Shown piece after piece: positions 2,172-54,399 of a DNA stretch of 64,000 bases. The stretch spans positions 1 to 64,000 of the forward strand of contig JAUJOT010000004.1 of the NCBI GenBank assembly GCA_030447505.1. Reading direction: 5' to 3'. The position numbers were made by a program, and so were the translations under genes. The DNA comes from Solirubrobacteraceae bacterium. GTDB taxonomy: Bacteria; Actinomycetota; Thermoleophilia; Solirubrobacterales; Solirubrobacteraceae. A model generated the notes under the pieces. That model searched no databases and was not told the origin of the DNA. It saw only the letters and a program-made list of their open reading frames with translations. How positions within the stretch are numbered: position 1 is the first letter of the stretch; each line of letters opens with the position of its first letter.

Positions 2172-2900
2172 GTGGGCCGCAGGCGTGGGGTGAGCCTGGC
2201 GCACGCCGTACGCGACAGGCTGCTCGACGGGATGCGAGCCGGGATCTTCTCAGGCGGTCGGCTGCCGCCCGAGGCCGACCTGGCCCGCAGGCTGGGCGTC
2301 AGCCGTGCGACGGTGCGGGCGGCGCTGCAGACGCTTGCCGAGGACGGCATCGTCTCGCGCCGAAGGCGGCACGGCACCGTCGTCAACGAGCACATGCTGC
2401 ACGGAAGCCTGCCTCTGAACCGGCTGCTGTCCTTCCGCGAGCTGGTCGAGCAGTCGGGGTACGTCGCGTCCGTCGATCCGCTGGTGCGACGACTGGAGGT
2501 GCCGCCGGCGGCGATCGCGACCGCGCTGCGGCTGGCGCCCGGGGAGCAGTGCCTCGTGATCAGGCGGCTGCTGCGCGCCGACGCGGCGCCCGCCATCACC
2601 GTCTCCGACATGCTGCCCCTGCGCTGGCTGTTGATGGCGCCGGACGAGGTGCCCGACGCCGACACGACGTTCAGCCTGATCGCCGAGAGCACGGGTGCGA
2701 CGGTCGATCATTCGGTCGTCGAGATCGTGCCCGGTGTCGCCACGGCTGCCGAGCCGGCGCATCTCGAGCTTCCTGCGGGCACGCCGTACGCCGAGTTGCG
2801 CGAGCTGCTCTTCTCGCCGCTGCAGGAGCCGGTGGCCTTCTCCGCGATCGCCGTCGACTGCCGTCGCGTGCGTCTGACCCTCGTCCGGCGGGAGGTCTGA
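2172..2900 (+). CDS. GntR/HutC-type transcriptional regulator with UTRA domain
   Basis: A one-component repressor of 242 residues. The N-terminal ~70 residues hold a winged helix-turn-helix with the GntR core LARRLGVSRATVRAAL. The remainder (about 85-235) has the layout of a UTRA ligand-binding domain, as in HutC-subfamily members. The gene can start at GTG 2172 or in frame at GTG 2190; the latter leaves the usual short lead-in to the winged helix. It directly precedes the permease and the urea/guanidine-type catabolic genes on the same strand, with a strong palindrome in the gap. I infer that it controls that operon and binds an intermediate or substrate of it. Confidence 0.88.
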   Translation: MGRRRGVSLAHAVRDRLLDGMRAGIFSGGRLPPEADLARRLGVSRATVRAALQTLAEDGIVSRRRRHGTVVNEHMLHGSLPLNRLLSFRELVEQSGYVASVDPLVRRLEVPPAAIATALRLAPGEQCLVIRRLLRADAAPAITVSDMLPLRWLLMAPDEVPDADTTFSLIAESTGATVDHSVVEIVPGVATAAEPAHLELPAGTPYAELRELLFSPLQEPVAFSAIAVDCRRVRLTLVRREV

Positions 2901-5155: not shown

Positions 5156-5809
5156 ATGACCGACACGCTCGTCAGCAGCGAGCTGGATCCCTCCGCCGCC
5201 GTCCTCGACCACACCCTGCAACCGGGCGAAGGCTGGATGCGGGTGCTGACCGCCGGGCAGCGCCTGCGGATCGTCGACCTCGCCGGCAACCAGGCCGTCG
5301 ACACGCTGTTCTACGACGCGCACCAGCCCGCCGAGCGCTACAGCGCGCAGGACACGATCCGCGAGCAGGGGTCGATCTACCTGACGACGGGCTCGCGACT
5401 GCTGACAGGCTCGGGCCGGCCGCTCGTGACGATCGTCGCCGACACCTGCGGCCGGCACGACACGCTGGGCGGCGCCTGCTCGCAGGAGAGCAACGCCGTG
5501 CGCTACGGCGAGCACACCCGCCACATGCACGCCTGCCGCCAGACGTTCCTCGCGCAGGCGCTCGCGTGGGGGCTGGAGAAGCGCGACCTCAGCCACAACG
5601 TCAACTTCTTCATGAACGTGCCGGTCACCCCCGAGGGCGGGCTGATGTTCGCGGACGGGCTCTCGGCGCCCGGAAAGTACGTCGAGATGCGAGCCGAGCG
5701 CGACGTGATCGTGCTGATCAGCAACTGCCCGCAGCTAAACAACCCCTGCAACGCCTACGACCCGACGCCGGTGCGCCTGCTCGTGTGGGACGACCCGGAG
5801 GCTGTGTAG
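5156..5809 (+). CDS. DUF1989 protein, urea carboxylase-associated type 2 (carboxyguanidine deiminase subunit candidate)
   Basis: A 217-residue DUF1989 paralogue. It carries ADTCGRHDTLGG near residue 98, a conserved Cys in GGACSQES, HNVNFFMNVPVTPEGG near 155 and the CPQLNNPCNAYDPTP block near the C-terminus, features of urea carboxylase-associated protein 2. The family forms a heteromeric enzyme with the type 1 protein encoded immediately upstream. AAGGGA lies ~8 bases before the ATG. The next gene starts right after its stop, so the two DUF1989 genes and the carboxyltransferase should be made together. Confidence 0.87.
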   Translation: MTDTLVSSELDPSAAVLDHTLQPGEGWMRVLTAGQRLRIVDLAGNQAVDTLFYDAHQPAERYSAQDTIREQGSIYLTTGSRLLTGSGRPLVTIVADTCGRHDTLGGACSQESNAVRYGEHTRHMHACRQTFLAQALAWGLEKRDLSHNVNFFMNVPVTPEGGLMFADGLSAPGKYVEMRAERDVIVLISNCPQLNNPCNAYDPTPVRLLVWDDPEAV

Positions 5810-7735
5810 ATGCCGATCGAGGTGCTCGCCGCCGGTCCGATGACGACCGTGCAGGAGTATCCGGGGCGCCGCGGGCTGTGGCCCGTCGGAGTCCCGCCGT
5901 CGGGTCCGATGGACGCGCTGTCGTTTCGCCTCGCCAACCGCCTGGCGGGCAACCCGTCGGGCACCGCGGCGCTGGAGATCACCGTCGGCGGCCTGCGCGT
6001 CCGCTTTGGCTGCGCGGCCACGATCGCTCTCGGAGGCGCGCAGATGCGCGCCGAGCTTGACGGCGAGCCGGTCGCGCTGTGGGAGCCCGTCGCGGTGCAC
6101 GCAGAGCAGGAGCTCGCGCTCGGCTGGACGCGCGGCGCCGGCCTGCGCGGCTACCTCGCCGTCACGGGCGGCATCCTCGTGCCCGAGGTCCTCGGCAGCC
6201 GGGCGACGTTCCCGCTCGGCGGCTTCGGCGGCCACGACGGACGCGCGCTCAAGCCCGGCGACCGCCTGACGATCGACGCGGACGCGCGTGGACCGAAACG
6301 GGCGATCTCGCTGCCGCTGCGGCCGGTGATCCGGCACGAGTGGAGGCTGCGCGTCAAGCAGGGCCCGCACGACGACGGCGAGTACTTCACCGACGAGGAC
6401 CTGACGGAGATCTTCGCCGCGACGTGGAAGGTCGGCGCCCAGTCGGATCGTACGGGCGTCCGGCTGGAAGGGCCGACGCCGACCTGGTCGCGCAGCGACG
6501 GCGGCGACGCCGGGCTGCACCCGTCCAACCTGCACGACAACGCGTACGTCGTCGGGTCGCTGATCTTCACCGGCGACGCGCCCGTCCTGATCGGTCCCGA
6601 CGGGCCGTCGCTCGGCGGCTTCGTGTCTCCGGCGGTCGTGATCCGCGCCGACCTGTGGAAGCTGGGCCAGCTGCGTCCGGGAGACAGCGTGCGCCTCGAA
6701 GCCGTCGGTGCGACTCGCGCCGCCGAGCTCGACGCGCGCCAGGAGCGTTCGCTGGAGCCGCGCATGCGGCCGTGGAAGACGGCGACCGCTGCGCCCGGGC
6801 TCGCACAGGCTGACGTCGTCGTGCGATCGTGCGGTGACAGCGCGCTGCTGGTCGAGTTCGGCGACAACACGCTCGACCTGCGGCTGCGGCTGCGCGTCCA
6901 CGCGCTGCAGGCGCGCCTCGAGGCGCAGGCGCTGCCCGGTGTCGGCGAGCTGACGCCCGGCATCCGCTCGCTGCAGGTGCAGTTCGACCCGCGCGACGCC
7001 GCCGGCGACGACCTGCGCCGCCAGATCGCGGCGCTCGTCGCAGACCTCGGCGCCGTCGACGACCTCGAGATCCCGGGCCGCGTCGTGCACCTGCCGCTGT
7101 CGTGGGACGACCCGTCGGCGCGCGAGGCGATGGAGCGCTACATGCGCCTCGTACGACCGGACGCGCCGTGGTGCCCTGACAACATCGACTTCATCCGCCG
7201 CGTCAACGGGCTCGAGGACCGCCAGCAGGTCCGCGAGATCGTCTTCTCGTCCGACTACCTCGTGCTCGGCCTCGGCGACGTCTACCTGGGAGCGCCGGTC
7301 GCCGTCCCGCTCGATCCTCGCCACCGCCTCGTGACGACCAAGTACAACCCCGCGCGGACCTGGACGCCGGAGAACGCCGTCGGAATCGGCGGTGCCTACC
7401 TGTGCGTCTACGGGATGGAGGGGCCCGGCGGCTACCAGCTCGTCGGCCGCACGACCCAGGTCTGGAATCCGCGCTGCATCGCCGAGGGCACGCCCTGGCT
7501 GCTGCGGCCGTTCGACCGGCTGCGGTTCTTCTCGGTCAGCGGCGAGGAGCTCGAGCGCCGCCGCAGCGCGCTGCTGGCGGGCGAGCTGGAGCTCGACACC
7601 GAGCCCGCCTCCTTCCGGCTCGCCGACCAGATCCGCTTCGTCGACGACAACGCCGCCGCGATCGCGACGTTCCGTCGCCGCCAGCAGGCTGCCTTCAGCG
7701 CCGAGCGCGACGCGTGGCAGGCGCTGGCGGCATGA
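5810..7735 (+). CDS. Carboxyltransferase-only urea/guanidine carboxylase (AHS2-AHS1 fusion)
   Basis: A 641-residue protein made only of the two carboxyltransferase subdomains of urea carboxylase. Residues 1-~320 match the KipA/AHS2 half (PPSGPMDALSFRLANRL). Residues ~338-620 match the KipI/AHS1 half with urea-carboxylase signatures (PWCPDNIDFIRRVNGL, TKYNPARTWTPENAVGIGG). Canonical enzymes are ~1200 residues, with a biotin carboxylase in front and a BCCP behind; both are absent and the ends fall exactly at domain borders. The reading frame is intact and overlaps atzF by ATGA. It either borrows BC-BCCP in trans (the accA product at 36-38 kb is one candidate) or works without biotin, like the related PxpBC 5-oxoprolinase subunits. 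Confidence 0.88.
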   Translation: MPIEVLAAGPMTTVQEYPGRRGLWPVGVPPSGPMDALSFRLANRLAGNPSGTAALEITVGGLRVRFGCAATIALGGAQMRAELDGEPVALWEPVAVHAEQELALGWTRGAGLRGYLAVTGGILVPEVLGSRATFPLGGFGGHDGRALKPGDRLTIDADARGPKRAISLPLRPVIRHEWRLRVKQGPHDDGEYFTDEDLTEIFAATWKVGAQSDRTGVRLEGPTPTWSRSDGGDAGLHPSNLHDNAYVVGSLIFTGDAPVLIGPDGPSLGGFVSPAVVIRADLWKLGQLRPGDSVRLEAVGATRAAELDARQERSLEPRMRPWKTATAAPGLAQADVVVRSCGDSALLVEFGDNTLDLRLRLRVHALQARLEAQALPGVGELTPGIRSLQVQFDPRDAAGDDLRRQIAALVADLGAVDDLEIPGRVVHLPLSWDDPSAREAMERYMRLVRPDAPWCPDNIDFIRRVNGLEDRQQVREIVFSSDYLVLGLGDVYLGAPVAVPLDPRHRLVTTKYNPARTWTPENAVGIGGAYLCVYGMEGPGGYQLVGRTTQVWNPRCIAEGTPWLLRPFDRLRFFSVSGEELERRRSALLAGELELDTEPASFRLADQIRFVDDNAAAIATFRRRQQAAFSAERDAWQALAA

Positions 7736-36116: not shown

Positions 36117-37952
36117 TCACTCGGCGTCGGTGATGACGGCGAGCACGTCGCCGCTGCGCACGAGATCGCCCTCGGAGATCGGCAGTTCGGAGATCACGCC
36201 GGCCTTGTGGGCCGTGATCTCGTTCTCCATCTTCATCGCCTCGATGATCGTCACGACCTCGCCCTCGACGACCTGCTGGCCGGCCCGGACGGGGATCTTC
36301 CAGACGCTGCCCTGCATCGGCGACGCGAGCGCGTCGTCGCCGTGGCCGTTCTCGCGCGACTTCTGTGCGCGCGCGGCACGCGCCGGGCGCTTGGACACGC
36401 TCGCGGCCGCGCCCGCGCCCGCGCCGCCGTTCGCGTTCGCCGCGGCGCGCGGCGCGCCCGGGGGGCCGATCACGCGCACGTCGAACCTGCGCCCCGAGAC
36501 CTCGACCGTGTAGGTCCGCTCGACGGTCTGCTGCTCGTCGGACGCGCCGCCCTTGCCAACCGGGGCCTGCTCGAACGCGAGCGCCTCGAGCCAGCCGCGG
36601 TCCTCGAGCAGGTCGCGGCAGGTCTCGCCGCGCGCCCACTGCTCGGTCTGCAGCAGCGCGCGGTGAAACGGGATCAGCGTCGTGAGCCCCCCGATCTCGT
36701 ACTCGGCGAGCGCGCGCAGCATGCGCCGCGTCGCCTGCTCGCGGTCGGCGTCCCAGACGATCAGCTTGGCGACCAGCGGGTCGTACATCGGCGAGACCTC
36801 GCTGCCCGCGCGGACGCCCGAGTCGACCCGCACGCCGGGCCCGGACGGCTCGACGTACGAGCCGATCCGGCCCGGTGCCGGCGCGAAGCTCTTCGACGCG
36901 TCCTCGGCATTGATGCGGCACTCGATCGCGTGGCCGCGCAGCACGACGTCGTCCTGTCCGACCGACAGCGGCTCGCCGGCCGCGACGCGGATGCCCTCCT
37001 TGACGATGTCGATGCCGGTCGTCATCTCGGTCACGCAGTGCTCGACCTGCACGCGCGTGTTCATCTCGAGGAAGAAGTAGCGGGGCGGGCGCGATCCGTC
37101 TCCGACGTCGAGCAGCCCCTCGACGGTGCCCGCGCCGCGGTAGTCGACCGCGCGCGCGGCCTCGACGGCGATCGTGCCGATCCGCCGGCGCAGCGCGTCG
37201 TCGACGATCCACTCCGGCGCCGGCGACTCCTCGACGAGCTTCTGGTGGCGGCGCTGGATCGAGCAGTCGCGCTCGCCGAGATGGATCGTGTTGCCGTGCC
37301 CGTCGGCGAGCACCTGGACCTCGACGTGGCGCGGGTCGCGCAGGTAGCGCTCGAGGTAGACCGTCGCGTCGGAGAAGAACCTCTCGCCCTCGCGCGCCGC
37401 GCCCTCGAAGGCGTCCTTCAGGTCCGCGGGCTTCAGCGCGACGCGAAAGCCCTTCCCCCCGCCCCCGCCAGCCGCCTTGACCGCGACCGGATAGCCGATC
37501 TCGTCGGCGGCGACCCGCTGCGCATCCTCCAACGAGGTCACCGGATCGACCGTGCCCGGCACGATCGGCACGCCCGCAGCGCGCATCAGCGCGCGCGCGC
37601 CCGTCTTCGAGCCCATCGCGTCGATCGCGCTCGCGGGCGGACCGATGAAGACGACGCCGGCCGCCTCGCAGGCGCGGGCGAAGGCGGCGTTCTCGGCGAG
37701 GAAGCCGTAGCCCGGATGGACCGCCTCGGCGCCGGACCGGCGCACGACCTCGAGGATCCGCTCGACGTTCAGGTAGCTCTCGGCAGGCGCCGAGCCGCCG
37801 AGCAGGTAGGACTCGCCGGCGCGCGCGACGTGCGGCGCGTCGCGGTCGAGCTCGGAGTAGACGGCCACCGAGGCGACGCCGAGCTCGTCGAGCGCGCGGA
37901 TGATGCGGACCGCGATCTCGCCGCGGTTGGCGATCAGGATCTTCGAGAACAT
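36117..37952 (-). CDS. accA: Acyl-CoA carboxylase alpha subunit (biotin carboxylase + BCCP)
   Basis: A 611-residue actinobacterial-type alpha chain. The biotin carboxylase part (1-~450) starts MFSKILIANRGEIAVRII and holds the ATP-grasp loop AAGGGGGKGFRV and EMNTRVQVEHCVTEMTTG. A ~70-residue Ala/Gly-rich linker (~510-540) precedes the BCCP, with SPMQGSVWKIPV and the biotinyl Lys in EAMKMENE (~574). It supplies carboxybiotin to beta subunits such as the product at 52.8 kb, giving malonyl- or methylmalonyl-CoA. It is also the only BC/BCCP source in this window for the carboxyltransferase at 5.8 kb. Confidence 0.95.
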   Translation of the reverse strand: MFSKILIANRGEIAVRIIRALDELGVASVAVYSELDRDAPHVARAGESYLLGGSAPAESYLNVERILEVVRRSGAEAVHPGYGFLAENAAFARACEAAGVVFIGPPASAIDAMGSKTGARALMRAAGVPIVPGTVDPVTSLEDAQRVAADEIGYPVAVKAAGGGGGKGFRVALKPADLKDAFEGAAREGERFFSDATVYLERYLRDPRHVEVQVLADGHGNTIHLGERDCSIQRRHQKLVEESPAPEWIVDDALRRRIGTIAVEAARAVDYRGAGTVEGLLDVGDGSRPPRYFFLEMNTRVQVEHCVTEMTTGIDIVKEGIRVAAGEPLSVGQDDVVLRGHAIECRINAEDASKSFAPAPGRIGSYVEPSGPGVRVDSGVRAGSEVSPMYDPLVAKLIVWDADREQATRRMLRALAEYEIGGLTTLIPFHRALLQTEQWARGETCRDLLEDRGWLEALAFEQAPVGKGGASDEQQTVERTYTVEVSGRRFDVRVIGPPGAPRAAANANGGAGAGAAASVSKRPARAARAQKSRENGHGDDALASPMQGSVWKIPVRAGQQVVEGEVVTIIEAMKMENEITAHKAGVISELPISEGDLVRSGDVLAVITDAE

Positions 37953-38067
37953 CTCACGGCATCGTAGGTGCCGCGGGGCCGAGGCGAGACTCAGGATCGG
38001 CGGGCGGCGCTGCACGCCAGGCCCAGCTGCGCGGCGCGCCGCCCGCCGGCCGGCATCGAAGCCGGGC

Positions 38068-39663
38068 TCAGGCGAGCACCTCGAACTGCGACATCAGGCC
38101 GTGGTCCTCGTGATCGAGCATGTGGCAGTGCACGACGTACTTGCCGGTGTAGTCGCTGACGCGCCCGGCGATCAGCACCCGCTCGCCGGGGTCCAGGAAG
38201 AACGTGTCCTTCAGGCACGCCTCCCACGGCGGCGGCCGCCGCCCGTTGCGCGAGAGCATGTACCAGTCGGTGTGGTGCAGGTGGATGAGGTGGGCGACGG
38301 CGGTCTGGTTGCGCAACTCCCAGGTCACGGTCTGCCCGAGCCTGGCGCTCGCCTCGACGAAGGCGGGATCGAACGACCGGCCGTTGATGAGCCAGCGCGG
38401 CCTGAGGCCGCCGCCGACCGTGAAGCGCCAGACGTGCGACGGCTCTGCGGGCGCCTCGGCGACCCACGCCGGAAGCGGACGCAGCTCGCGCGGAACCGCG
38501 CTGCGATCGGGCTCGCGCTGGCTGCCGACGCGGAACTGCATCAGAGGCCCGGCGTAGGAGACCGAACCCAGCTTGTTCGGCCCCTGGCGGCGCCGGCCGC
38601 TGAGCAGGTGGATGCGGCGCCCGCGGGCGGCGGCGAAGTCGACGACGAGCTCGACCCGCTCGCCCGGCCCGAGCAGAACCCGGCTGCGGCGCACCGGGCG
38701 GGGCATGAGGCCGGCGTCGGTCGCGATCTGGACGATCGGCAGGCCGCCGCTCAGGCGCAGCTCGTAGGCGCGGAAGTGCGACGCGTTGAGCACCCGCAGG
38801 CGATAGCGCTGGGCCCGCACGCGGTGGTATGGCAGCACCGCGCCGTTGACCAGCACGTGCCGGCCGGTGACGCCGTCGTCGGGTGGGCGCCGCCGCGCGG
38901 CGAAGGGGTCGGTGAGCTGGTTGCGCGCGTCGAACGAGCGGTCGGCGAGCATCAGCGGGATGTCGCGCTGCCCGCGCGGCAGCGGCAGCGACGCGTCGAG
39001 CTCGTCGTCGAGGATCCACATCCCGGCGAGCCCGCGCCAGACGTTGCGCGCGGTCCTGTCGAGGCGGTGGTCGTGATACCACTGGAAGGCGGCGCGCTCG
39101 GGCGCCCCGTCCTCGATCAGCTCGTACGTGTAGGTGCGCTCGCCGCCGGGAGCGATCAGCAGCTCGTTGCCCGACTCGGTTGCGCTGAGGCCCGCCGAGA
39201 TGTCGCAGTACAGCGACTGCGGCTGTGCCGCCGTCAGGCCACCGGGCTGGCCGTCCTCCTCACAGCGGTTGTGCCCTCCGTGCAGATGCACGGTGAGCTC
39301 GCCGGCCTGGCGCGGAAGCCGATGCTCGAAGCGCACGCGCGTGGTGGCGCCCGCCGGGCGGCGGATCGTCGGCCCCGGAAAGCTGCCGCCGTAGGTCCAC
39401 ATCCGCGTCCTGCGACCGGGCAGGATCGCGACCTCGGCCTCGCGCATCGGGATCGTCAGGTCGGCGCCGGTCAGGACCTCGGGGATCGGCAGCGGCGTGG
39501 AGTACGGCCGCGCCGATCGGCGAACCCGCAGGCGCGTGCCGGACGCCGGTGCGCGCGCCGCGGGCGGAAGCGTCAGCGCGAGCGCGCCCGCCGCCGCGGC
39601 GGACAGCAGCGATCGGCGGCTGATGGCGTCGATCGGCGGCTGCGGCTGGAGCTGCTGTCGCAT
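38068..39663 (-). CDS. Tat-exported multicopper oxidase
   Basis: A 531-residue three-cupredoxin oxidase. A twin-arginine leader (ISRRSLLSAAAAGALAL) covers residues 14-32. The copper motifs are present in order: HLHGGHN (~147), WYHDHRLD (~213), HLIHLHHTDWY (~458) and HCHMLDHEDHGLM (~512), providing the trinuclear and type 1 sites. It resembles CotA/bilirubin-oxidase and phenoxazinone-synthase-like enzymes. It may oxidise phenolics, bilirubin-like compounds or metals outside the cell. The cupredoxin 54 bases upstream on the same strand is a likely electron partner. Confidence 0.92.
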   Translation of the reverse strand: MRQQLQPQPPIDAISRRSLLSAAAAGALALTLPPAARAPASGTRLRVRRSARPYSTPLPIPEVLTGADLTIPMREAEVAILPGRRTRMWTYGGSFPGPTIRRPAGATTRVRFEHRLPRQAGELTVHLHGGHNRCEEDGQPGGLTAAQPQSLYCDISAGLSATESGNELLIAPGGERTYTYELIEDGAPERAAFQWYHDHRLDRTARNVWRGLAGMWILDDELDASLPLPRGQRDIPLMLADRSFDARNQLTDPFAARRRPPDDGVTGRHVLVNGAVLPYHRVRAQRYRLRVLNASHFRAYELRLSGGLPIVQIATDAGLMPRPVRRSRVLLGPGERVELVVDFAAARGRRIHLLSGRRRQGPNKLGSVSYAGPLMQFRVGSQREPDRSAVPRELRPLPAWVAEAPAEPSHVWRFTVGGGLRPRWLINGRSFDPAFVEASARLGQTVTWELRNQTAVAHLIHLHHTDWYMLSRNGRRPPPWEACLKDTFFLDPGERVLIAGRVSDYTGKYVVHCHMLDHEDHGLMSQFEVLA

Positions 39664-52831: not shown

Positions 52832-54399
52832 AGCGGGATGTTGCCGTGCTTGCGCTTGGGGCGCTCGACGCGCTTGCTCTGCAGGGCCTCGAGCGCGGCG
52901 ATCAGCTTCGGCCGCGTCTCGTGCGGGATGATCACGTCGTCGACGTAGCCGCGCTCGCCGGCCGAGTACGGGTTGGCGAAGCGGGCGCGGTAGTCGTCCA
53001 TCAGCCGCTCGCGACGGGCCTCCGGCGTCGGCGAGCCCGCGATGTCGCGGCGGTAGATGATGTTCACCGCGCCCTCGGGCCCCATCACCGCGACCTCGGC
53101 GGTCGGCCAGGCGAGGTTGAGGTCGGCGCCGATGTGCTTGGAGGCCATCACGACGTACGCGCCGCCGTAGGCCTTGCGGGTGACGATCGTGATCTTCGGA
53201 ACGGTCGCCTCGGCGAAGGCGTACAGCAGCTTCGCGCCGTGGCGGATGATCCCGTTCCACTCCTGCGCCGTGCCGGGCAGAAAGCCGGGCACGTCGCAGA
53301 GCGCCACGAGCGGGATGTTGAACGCGTCGCACGTGCGCACGAAGCGGGCGGCCTTGACGCTTGCGTCGATGTCGAGCGCGCCGGCCATGCTCGCCGGCTG
53401 GTTTGCGACGATCGCGACGGCGTGGCCGTCGAGGCGCGCGAAGCCGCAGACGATGTTCTTCGCGTAGTGCTCGTGGACCTCGTAGAACTCGCCGTCGTCG
53501 ACGATCATGCGCACCGGCAGGCGCACGTCGTAGGGCTTGTTCGGGTTCGCCGGCACGACCTCGTCGAGCTCGGGGTCCATCCGCAGCGGATCGTCGGTCG
53601 GCAGCACGCGCGGCGTCGGCTCGAGGTTGTTCGACGGCAGGAAGCTCAGCAGGTAGCGCGTGTCCTGCAGGCAGGCCTCCTCGTCCTCACAGGCGAAGTG
53701 CGCGACGCCCGACTTCTCGCTGTGCGTGTCAGCGCCGCCGAGCTCCTCGAACTCGACATCCTCGCCGGTGACCGTGCGGATCACGTCGGGGCCCGTGATG
53801 AACATGTGCGAGGTCTGCTTGACCATGAAGACGAAGTCCGTGATCGCCGGCGAGTAGACGGCGCCGCCGGCGCAGGGACCCATCACGAGGCTGATCTGCG
53901 GGATCACCCCGCTGCAGTTGACGTTGCGCATGAAGACCTCGCCGTAGGCCCCGAGCGAGACGACGCCCTCCTGGATCCGGGCGCCGCCCGAGTCGTTGAT
54001 GCCGATCACCGGGCAGCCGATCTTCGCCGCCAGGTCCATGACCTTGCAGATCTTCTCGGACATGACCTCCCCGACCGATCCGCCGAAGACGCTGAAGTCC
54101 TGCGAGAAGACGCAGACGCGGCGCCCGTCGACGGTGCCGTGACCGGTGACGACGGCGTCGCCCCAGGGACGCTTGCGCTGCATCTCGAAGTCGTGCGTGC
54201 GATGGCGCGCGAAGGTGTCGAGCTCCTGGAAGGAACCCGCGTCGAGCAGCTTGTGGATGCGCTCGCGCGCACTCAGCCGCCCGCGCTCGTGCTGCTTCTT
54301 CTCGGACTCGCGCTCGATGCGGCCCGCCGCCTCGCGCAGCTCGAGCAGCTGCGCGAGCTTCATCTCGTACGTGGCCGGGGCCTTCTGGCGCTTGGACAT
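52828..54399 (-). CDS. pccB: Acyl-CoA (propionyl-CoA) carboxylase beta subunit
   Basis: A 523-residue carboxyltransferase. [14 protein letters not shown]-like N-terminal sequence, [41 protein letters not shown] (first oxyanion hole), [36 protein letters not shown] and [20 protein letters not shown] (second) are all present. It uses carboxybiotin from an accA-type alpha chain to carboxylate propionyl- or acetyl-CoA. The nearby methylmalonyl-CoA mutase makes propionyl-CoA the likelier substrate. ATG 54399 begins [19 protein letters not shown]. Confidence 0.93.

What the first reader, a model, noticed from the sequence alone, without database searches (positions are those of the whole stretch)
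5810..7735. Carboxylase of the guanidine/urea operon lacks biotin carboxylase and BCCP domains
The 641-residue protein begins and ends at the borders of the carboxyltransferase module of urea carboxylase and keeps that family's signatures, yet both the 450-residue biotin carboxylase and the biotin carrier are missing. It is flanked by two DUF1989 proteins (carboxyguanidine deiminase type) and allophanate hydrolase, so a carboxylation step is expected. Either BC-BCCP is supplied in trans, which would be a split enzyme sharing fatty-acid-type AccA, or the module works without biotin like PxpBC.
Basis: partly seen in the sequence, partly recalled or inferred. Interest (0 to 1): 0.76.

Follow-up and report, generated by a model that had tools for sequence, protein, structure and literature searches.

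The report
Guanidine carboxylase missing its biotin half
A soil-type actinobacterium, like many relatives, keeps only the last-step domain of the enzyme that attaches CO2 to guanidine (a nitrogen-rich waste compound), and most likely borrows the missing biotin-carrying half from its fatty-acid synthesis enzyme.

Summary
Confirmed. Window 5810-7735 (+) encodes only the carboxyltransferase (CT) of urea/guanidine carboxylase. It sits in an unbroken operon: GntR, APC permease, two DUF1989 proteins (UAAP1/UAAP2 = CgdA/B type), CT, allophanate hydrolase. It is not an assembly error: 16 relatives in Solirubrobacterales share the form, and the biotin-carboxylase-less (BC-less) state needs about five changes across Actinomycetota. 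The genome has only two BC-BCCP proteins: an AccA (window 36117-38015) and a methylcrotonyl-CoA-carboxylase alpha. Neither belongs to the urea-carboxylase BC clade; there is no PxpA. AccA is conserved in all 25 BC-less genomes examined. In PDB 9YX5 an M. smegmatis acyl-CoA carboxylase complex (entry includes AccA3) was solved with a stand-alone CT pair of this superfamily bound. Best explanation: a split guanidine carboxylase drawing carboxybiotin from shared AccA; the interaction is inferred, not shown. Even so, 10 sister genomes each carry one guanidine-I riboswitch heading this operon or its importer genes. Guanidine, or something close, is probably still the substrate, read by an altered pocket. 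New variant of a known kind.

The parts
2172..2900 (+). GntR-family regulator with UTRA domain
   Evidence: Pfam GntR and UTRA; orthologues next to the same operon in L055, L056 and, at 44%, beside riboswitch-controlled L070
2984..4420 (+). APC-superfamily permease, probable guanidine importer
   Evidence: Pfam AA_permease_2; closest NCBIfam model TIGR03428 'permease, urea carboxylase system', 170 bits, below cut-off; 73-78% orthologues in L055-L057, and 79% beside a full-length guanidine carboxylase in L060
4417..5142 (+). UAAP1, DUF1989 protein (carboxyguanidine deiminase type subunit); start overlaps the permease stop
   Evidence: TIGR03425 273 bits, cut-off 206; ATGA overlap
5156..5809 (+). 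UAAP2, DUF1989 protein (carboxyguanidine deiminase type subunit)
   Evidence: TIGR03424 330 bits, cut-off 285; 95% of conserved columns kept in this clade
5810..7735 (+). Stand-alone urea/guanidine-carboxylase-type carboxyltransferase (CT), 641 aa, lacking BC and BCCP
6563..6565 (+). Codon of Ile252 = K. lactis urea amidolyase N1330, the published Asp (guanidine) / Asn (urea) specificity position
   Evidence: alignment, counts; rule from PMC11410670
7277..7279 (+). Codon of Asp490 = K. lactis D1584, required signature residue, conserved
7340..7342 (+). Codon of Lys511 = K. lactis K1605, proposed general base of the CT reaction, conserved
   Evidence: (PMC5770610)
7732..9444 (+). Allophanate hydrolase (amidase + AH_C), start overlaps the CT stop
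   Evidence: TIGR02713 716 bits, cut-off 511; amidase-signature Lys/Ser residues invariant
36117..38015 (-). AccA-type BC-BCCP protein (likely start about 37952), candidate carboxybiotin donor; biotinyl lysine K595 in AMKM
   Evidence: orthologue in 25/25 BC-less genomes
52837..54297 (-). Acyl-CoA carboxylase beta (Carboxyl_trans), probable partner of the same AccA
   Evidence: partnership inferred

Best explanation
The protein is the CT subunit of a split guanidine carboxylase. AccA, the BC-BCCP subunit that also serves acyl-CoA carboxylation, charges its biotin with CO2 using ATP and bicarbonate. It presents carboxybiotin to this CT, which carboxylates guanidine (or a close guanidine compound) to carboxyguanidine. 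UAAP1/UAAP2 hydrolyse that to allophanate, and allophanate hydrolase releases ammonia and CO2. Shown here: the missing domains, operon context, genome-wide BC inventory, phylogeny, conserved catalytic residues, changed specificity residue, and guanidine riboswitches on sister operons. Inferred: that AccA is the donor, and that guanidine is the substrate in this genome, which has no riboswitch of its own.
For: Only two BC proteins in the genome, AccA and an MCC alpha beside acyl-CoA dehydrogenase and HMG-lyase-like genes. Neither falls in the 100/100 clade of urea-carboxylase BCs. In relative G027 AccA is the only stand-alone BC-BCCP; its other BC is pyruvate-carboxylase-sized. AccA orthologue in 25/25 BC-less genomes. 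BC-less state needs 5 changes on the CT tree, at least 4 forced by well-supported branches. Catalytic K511 and D490 kept. BC-less CTs of the Asp type keep 97% of 233 conserved columns. PDB 9YX5: M. smegmatis long-chain acyl-CoA carboxylase complex with MSMEG_0435-0436, a stand-alone CT_A_B/CT_C_D pair, bound; its entry contains AccA3. AccA3 is known to be shared by several CT subunits (PMC11001197, PMC5407890). One guanidine-I riboswitch in each of 10 clade-B genomes, heading the UAAP1-UAAP2-CT-AH operon or its hydrolase/transporter genes. UAAP2 and AH conserved cores kept.
Against: No direct evidence of AccA-CT contact in this organism; accA lies 28 kb away and is not co-transcribed. Residue 252 is Ile, not the Asp used to define guanidine carboxylases, and several other columns conserved in full-length enzymes have changed in this clade. 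The genome itself has no guanidine-I riboswitch. The MSMEG_0435-0436 pair is closer to the PxpB/PxpC side of the superfamily than to this protein, so the precedent is not an orthologue.
Confidence: 0.7

Rival explanations
1. Biotin-independent enzyme working like PxpBC: the CT fold activates its substrate or bicarbonate with ATP and needs no BC or BCCP.
For: The same fold does ATP-dependent, biotin-free chemistry in PxpBC (established knowledge); several columns conserved in biotin-dependent full-length enzymes differ here.
Against: Sequence is urea-carboxylase-like, not PxpBC-like (861 bits against 163 for PxpC and 51 for PxpB, both far below cut-off); PxpA absent; BC-less Asp-type relatives keep 97% of conserved columns, and BC was lost several times, so a biotin-free mechanism would have to arise repeatedly.
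Confidence: 0.1
2. Split carboxylase, but the donor is the MCC-alpha protein (contig 12), not AccA.
For: It is the only other BC-BCCP in the genome.
Against: It sits in a leucine-degradation-type cluster; relative G027 has no MCC-alpha yet keeps the BC-less CT; the AccA orthologue is the one always present.
Confidence: 0.08
3. Split carboxylase of a different substrate: the Ile/Met pocket takes a substituted guanidine (for example methylguanidine), guanylurea or another amidine rather than guanidine. This is compatible with AccA as donor, so its probability overlaps with the best explanation.
For: The Asp/Asn specificity residue is replaced by Ile/Met in all 17 clade-B rows, with further changes at columns 211, 242, 273, 499, 513 and 530; a subgroup adds an oligopeptide-type ABC importer and an isochorismatase-like hydrolase, the superfamily of guanylurea hydrolase (PMC9800807).
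Against: Guanidine-I riboswitches control the sister operons, and the V. boliviensis class I riboswitch was reported specific for guanidine (PMC12508155); UAAP2 and AH are unchanged in their conserved cores.
Confidence: 0.25
4. Decaying or mis-assembled remnant of a full-length guanidine carboxylase.
For: BC and BCCP are missing.
Against: Open frame, tight gene overlaps, and the same form in 16 clade-B relatives at 49-76% identity, several in single-contig genomes.
Confidence: 0.01

Closest known systems
Guanidine carboxylase pathway (GC, CgdAB, allophanate hydrolase AtzF)
   Same: Same CT module, same DUF1989 pair, same allophanate hydrolase, similar operon; guanidine-I riboswitch on sister operons
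   Different: No BC and no BCCP on the polypeptide; Ile/Met in place of the Asp at K. lactis position 1330
Urea carboxylase / urea amidolyase of K. lactis (PDB 3VA7, 5I8I)
   Same: CT fold (TM 0.82 on the query), catalytic Lys1605 and Asp1584 equivalents
   Different: Fungal enzyme carries BC, CT and BCCP in one chain; Asn at 1330
Actinobacterial acyl-CoA carboxylases with a shared AccA3
   Same: Predicted use of one BC-BCCP subunit by several CT subunits
   Different: Their CTs are the CoA type (PF01039), not CT_A_B/CT_C_D
MSMEG_0435-MSMEG_0436 bound to M. smegmatis long-chain acyl-CoA carboxylase (PDB 9YX5)
   Same: Stand-alone CT_A_B/CT_C_D proteins physically on an acyl-CoA carboxylase complex whose entry contains AccA3
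   Different: Two separate chains nearer PxpB/PxpC; activity of that assembly not known to me
PxpABC 5-oxoprolinase (PxpB, PxpC)
   Same: Same superfamily fold, no BC or BCCP
   Different: Much lower sequence similarity, needs PxpA, which this genome lacks
M. smegmatis MSMEG_2184-2189 operon (AmtR/GlnR regulated)
   Same: Same gene order: permease, two unknown frames, 'urea carboxylase', amidase; nitrogen-starvation induced (PMC4222082, PMC3662644)
   Different: Annotated as urea amidolyase; the held papers do not mention a missing BC. That MSMEG_2187 is BC-less is inferred from loci L155-L160 of another actinobacterial family, not read directly

Membership tests
Urea/guanidine carboxylase (TIGR02712) | CT_A_B and CT_C_D carboxyltransferase module | tested here: met
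Urea/guanidine carboxylase (TIGR02712) | N-terminal biotin carboxylase on the same chain | tested here: not met
   TIGR02712 1-448 unmatched; nearest BC is about 28 kb away
Urea/guanidine carboxylase (TIGR02712) | C-terminal biotin carrier domain with biotinyl lysine | tested here: not met
Urea/guanidine carboxylase (TIGR02712) | Score above curated cut-off | tested here: not met
   861 against 1303.85 bits
Urea/guanidine carboxylase (TIGR02712) | General base Lys (K. lactis K1605) and Asp1584 | tested here: met
   K511 and D490
Guanidine carboxylase | Asp at K. lactis position 1330 | tested here: not met
   Ile252; Asp in 84 of 87 relatives with an adjacent BC
Guanidine carboxylase | Operon with CgdA/B-type DUF1989 pair and allophanate hydrolase | tested here: met
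Guanidine carboxylase | Guanidine riboswitch control | tested here: inconclusive
   absent in this genome, present in 10 of 18 clade-B genomes searched
Guanidine carboxylase | Carboxylates guanidine | not testable with these tools
   needs enzyme assay
PxpABC 5-oxoprolinase | PxpC/PxpB equivalog scores | tested here: not met
   163 against 500 and 51 against 146 bits
PxpABC 5-oxoprolinase | PxpA (LamB_YcsF) in the genome | tested here: not met
   no match in G000
AccA3-type shared carboxylase complex | A BC-BCCP alpha subunit available in trans, without a dedicated beta neighbour | tested here: met
AccA3-type shared carboxylase complex | CT subunit is of the CoA type (PF01039) | tested here: not met
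   P0001 has no PF01039 match
AccA3-type shared carboxylase complex | Physical complex with AccA | not testable with these tools
   precedent only: 9YX5

The most novel reading that the evidence does not exclude
A biotin-free, ATP-dependent carboxylase built on the urea-carboxylase CT fold, with a third substrate pocket (Ile/Met), that carboxylates guanidine or a derivative without any BC or carrier.
Probability: 0.09. Interest if true: 0.88.

Novelty: new variant of a known kind. Interest (0 to 1): 0.62.

Why it matters
If right, guanidine assimilation in many Actinomycetota runs on the same biotin carboxylase as fatty-acid synthesis, tying nitrogen scavenging to lipid supply. Genome pipelines that require a full-length enzyme or the Asp1330 signature would miss these organisms as guanidine users. 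It would also answer, at least for one group, a question left open in 2011 (PMC3199775): whether stand-alone urea-carboxylase CTs work with other BCs.

Tried and rejected
Hidden BC or BCCP remnant around the gene: none, the gene junctions leave no room. Second CT or full-length enzyme in the genome: none. Guanidine riboswitch in the window: none, even at relaxed threshold. PxpA: none. BC gene next to any BC-less CT in relatives: none found. My first reading, that Ile/Met meant a non-guanidine substrate, was weakened when guanidine-I riboswitches appeared on sister operons. The AlphaFold model (mean pLDDT 76.9, active-site loops under 50) confirms the fold but is too weak there, and gives no coordinates, to judge the pocket. 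Plasmid records gave only relatives under 60% identity, mostly annotated as urea carboxylase; their domain content was not checked. Key enzymology papers (K. lactis urea carboxylase 2012; guanidine carboxylase 2020 and 2021) are not held; their residue rules were taken from later open papers.

Full report
WHAT IS THERE. ORF 5810-7735 (+) is a clean 641-residue protein with only CT_A_B and CT_C_D, matching urea carboxylase TIGR02712 at 449-1108 of 1201. Its AlphaFold model matches K. lactis urea amidolyase and urea carboxylase (5I8I, 3VA7) first, at 38-39% identity (sequence match). The operon reads GntR/UTRA regulator, APC permease, UAAP1, UAAP2, CT, allophanate hydrolase, with start/stop overlaps or near-zero gaps from the permease to the hydrolase.

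NOT AN ARTEFACT. In this order, 16 further loci carry the same BC-less CT between UAAP2 and allophanate hydrolase, some in single-contig genomes. Two order members (L059, L060) and nearly all Proteobacteria, cyanobacteria and others sampled have the full BC-CT-BCCP chain at the same operon position. A second BC-less group occurs in another actinobacterial family (L155-L160), with single cases L058, L062 and L150. On a 58-row tree the BC-less label needs five changes, and well-supported branches force at least four; the window lies in an all-BC-less clade of 17 rows, here called clade B (support 94/88). The root is uncertain, so clade B may be either a loss or a relic of an unfused state.

WHERE IS THE BIOTIN? 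The genome has two proteins with both BC and BCCP: AccA at window 36117-38015, whose neighbours are not a carboxyltransferase, and an MCC alpha on contig 12 beside acyl-CoA dehydrogenase, an HMG-lyase-like gene and a CT beta. Urea-carboxylase BCs from full-length enzymes form one 100/100 clade that contains none of the BCs sampled from BC-less genomes; for the window genome and for G005, G027 and G063 the sampled BCs are the complete set found. G027 has only AccA and a pyruvate-carboxylase-sized BC. An AccA relative is present in all 25 BC-less genomes: 67% or more identical in this order and 46-49% in the other family. The genome has three CoA-type CTs for two BC-BCCP proteins, so AccA is probably shared already. 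Mycobacterial AccA3 is known to be shared by several CT subunits (PMC11001197, PMC5407890). PDB entry 9YX5 is titled as the M. smegmatis long-chain acyl-CoA carboxylase complex with MSMEG_0435-0436 bound; these two chains are the split CT_A_B/CT_C_D relatives of our protein, and AccA3 is a chain of the same entry. I could not read the structure paper.

IS IT GUANIDINE? K. lactis K1605 (general base, PMC5770610) and D1584 are K511 and D490 here. Position 1330, Asp in guanidine and Asn in urea carboxylases (PMC11410670), is Ile252. Among relatives, 84 of 87 loci with an adjacent BC have Asp and 3 have Asn (one of these, L074, is a split-gene system); BC-less loci outside clade B have Asp except L161 (Ala); clade B has only Ile or Met. 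Clade B also differs at other columns conserved in full-length enzymes (211, 242, 253-254, 273, 499, 513, 530), keeping 85% of 233 such columns against 97% for the Asp-type BC-less group. The downstream enzymes have not changed in the same way: UAAP2 keeps 95% and AH 90% of conserved columns. Ten of the 18 clade-B genomes searched carry one guanidine-I riboswitch each (73-85 bits; cut-off 63). It heads UAAP1-UAAP2-CT-AH in G030 and G171, a UAAP1-bearing contig in G119, and an isochorismatase-like hydrolase plus oligopeptide-type ABC importer running into UAAP1-UAAP2-CT-AH in G127, G133, G156 and G164; in G361, G140 and G198 the hydrolase/importer genes sit on a separate contig. No riboswitch was found above cut-off in the Asp-type actinobacterial genomes tested. 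L070 combines the riboswitch-controlled operon with divergent relatives of the window's GntR and permease. The hydrolase belongs to the superfamily of guanylurea hydrolase (PMC9800807). I therefore read clade B as still serving guanidine or a close relative, with a differently built pocket. This conflicts with the Asp1330 rule and is the most testable new point.

MECHANISM. Steps shown by sequence: CT present with catalytic residues, deiminase-type pair, allophanate hydrolase. Steps inferred: AccA charges biotin with ATP and bicarbonate; its BCCP visits this CT; carboxyguanidine, then allophanate, then ammonia and CO2. The biotin-free rival is not excluded but would have to arise several times in proteins that otherwise keep the biotin-dependent sequence.

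PRIOR ART. Lombard and Moreira (PMC3199775) noted that CT relatives are more widespread than urea-carboxylase BCs and left open whether they work with other BCs. The M. smegmatis operon MSMEG_2184-2189 has this gene order and is nitrogen-regulated (PMC4222082, PMC3662644, PMC4617892). I found no held paper that describes the missing BC; subscription papers were not searchable.

Noticed in passing
L171 4412-8166, L172 2136-5682, L074 6000-9484: Split urea-type systems in the same order: separate CT_C_D and CT_A_B genes (Asn at the specificity position) beside a stand-alone BC, with a BCCP gene also found in L171 and L172; possibly a four-gene heteromeric urea carboxylase.
   Followed up: partly
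L064 137-11172, L065 205-11245, L063 6037-17082, L061 with L224: Guanidine-I riboswitch operon with isochorismatase-like hydrolase and oligopeptide-type ABC importer ahead of UAAP1-UAAP2-CT-AH; the hydrolase may be a guanylurea hydrolase.
   Followed up: partly
L161 8898-10862: BC-less CT with Ala at the specificity position, Glu and Arg in place of the conserved Asp and Lys, no UAAP or AH, near ribosomal-protein and RNA-polymerase-like genes: perhaps a non-catalytic relative.
   Followed up: no
L155-L157: Loci of another actinobacterial family with UAAP1, UAAP2 and BC-less CT but no allophanate hydrolase nearby.
   Followed up: no
window 38068-39663 (-): Looks like a multicopper oxidase, directly upstream of accA on the same strand; function of the pairing unclear.
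   Followed up: no
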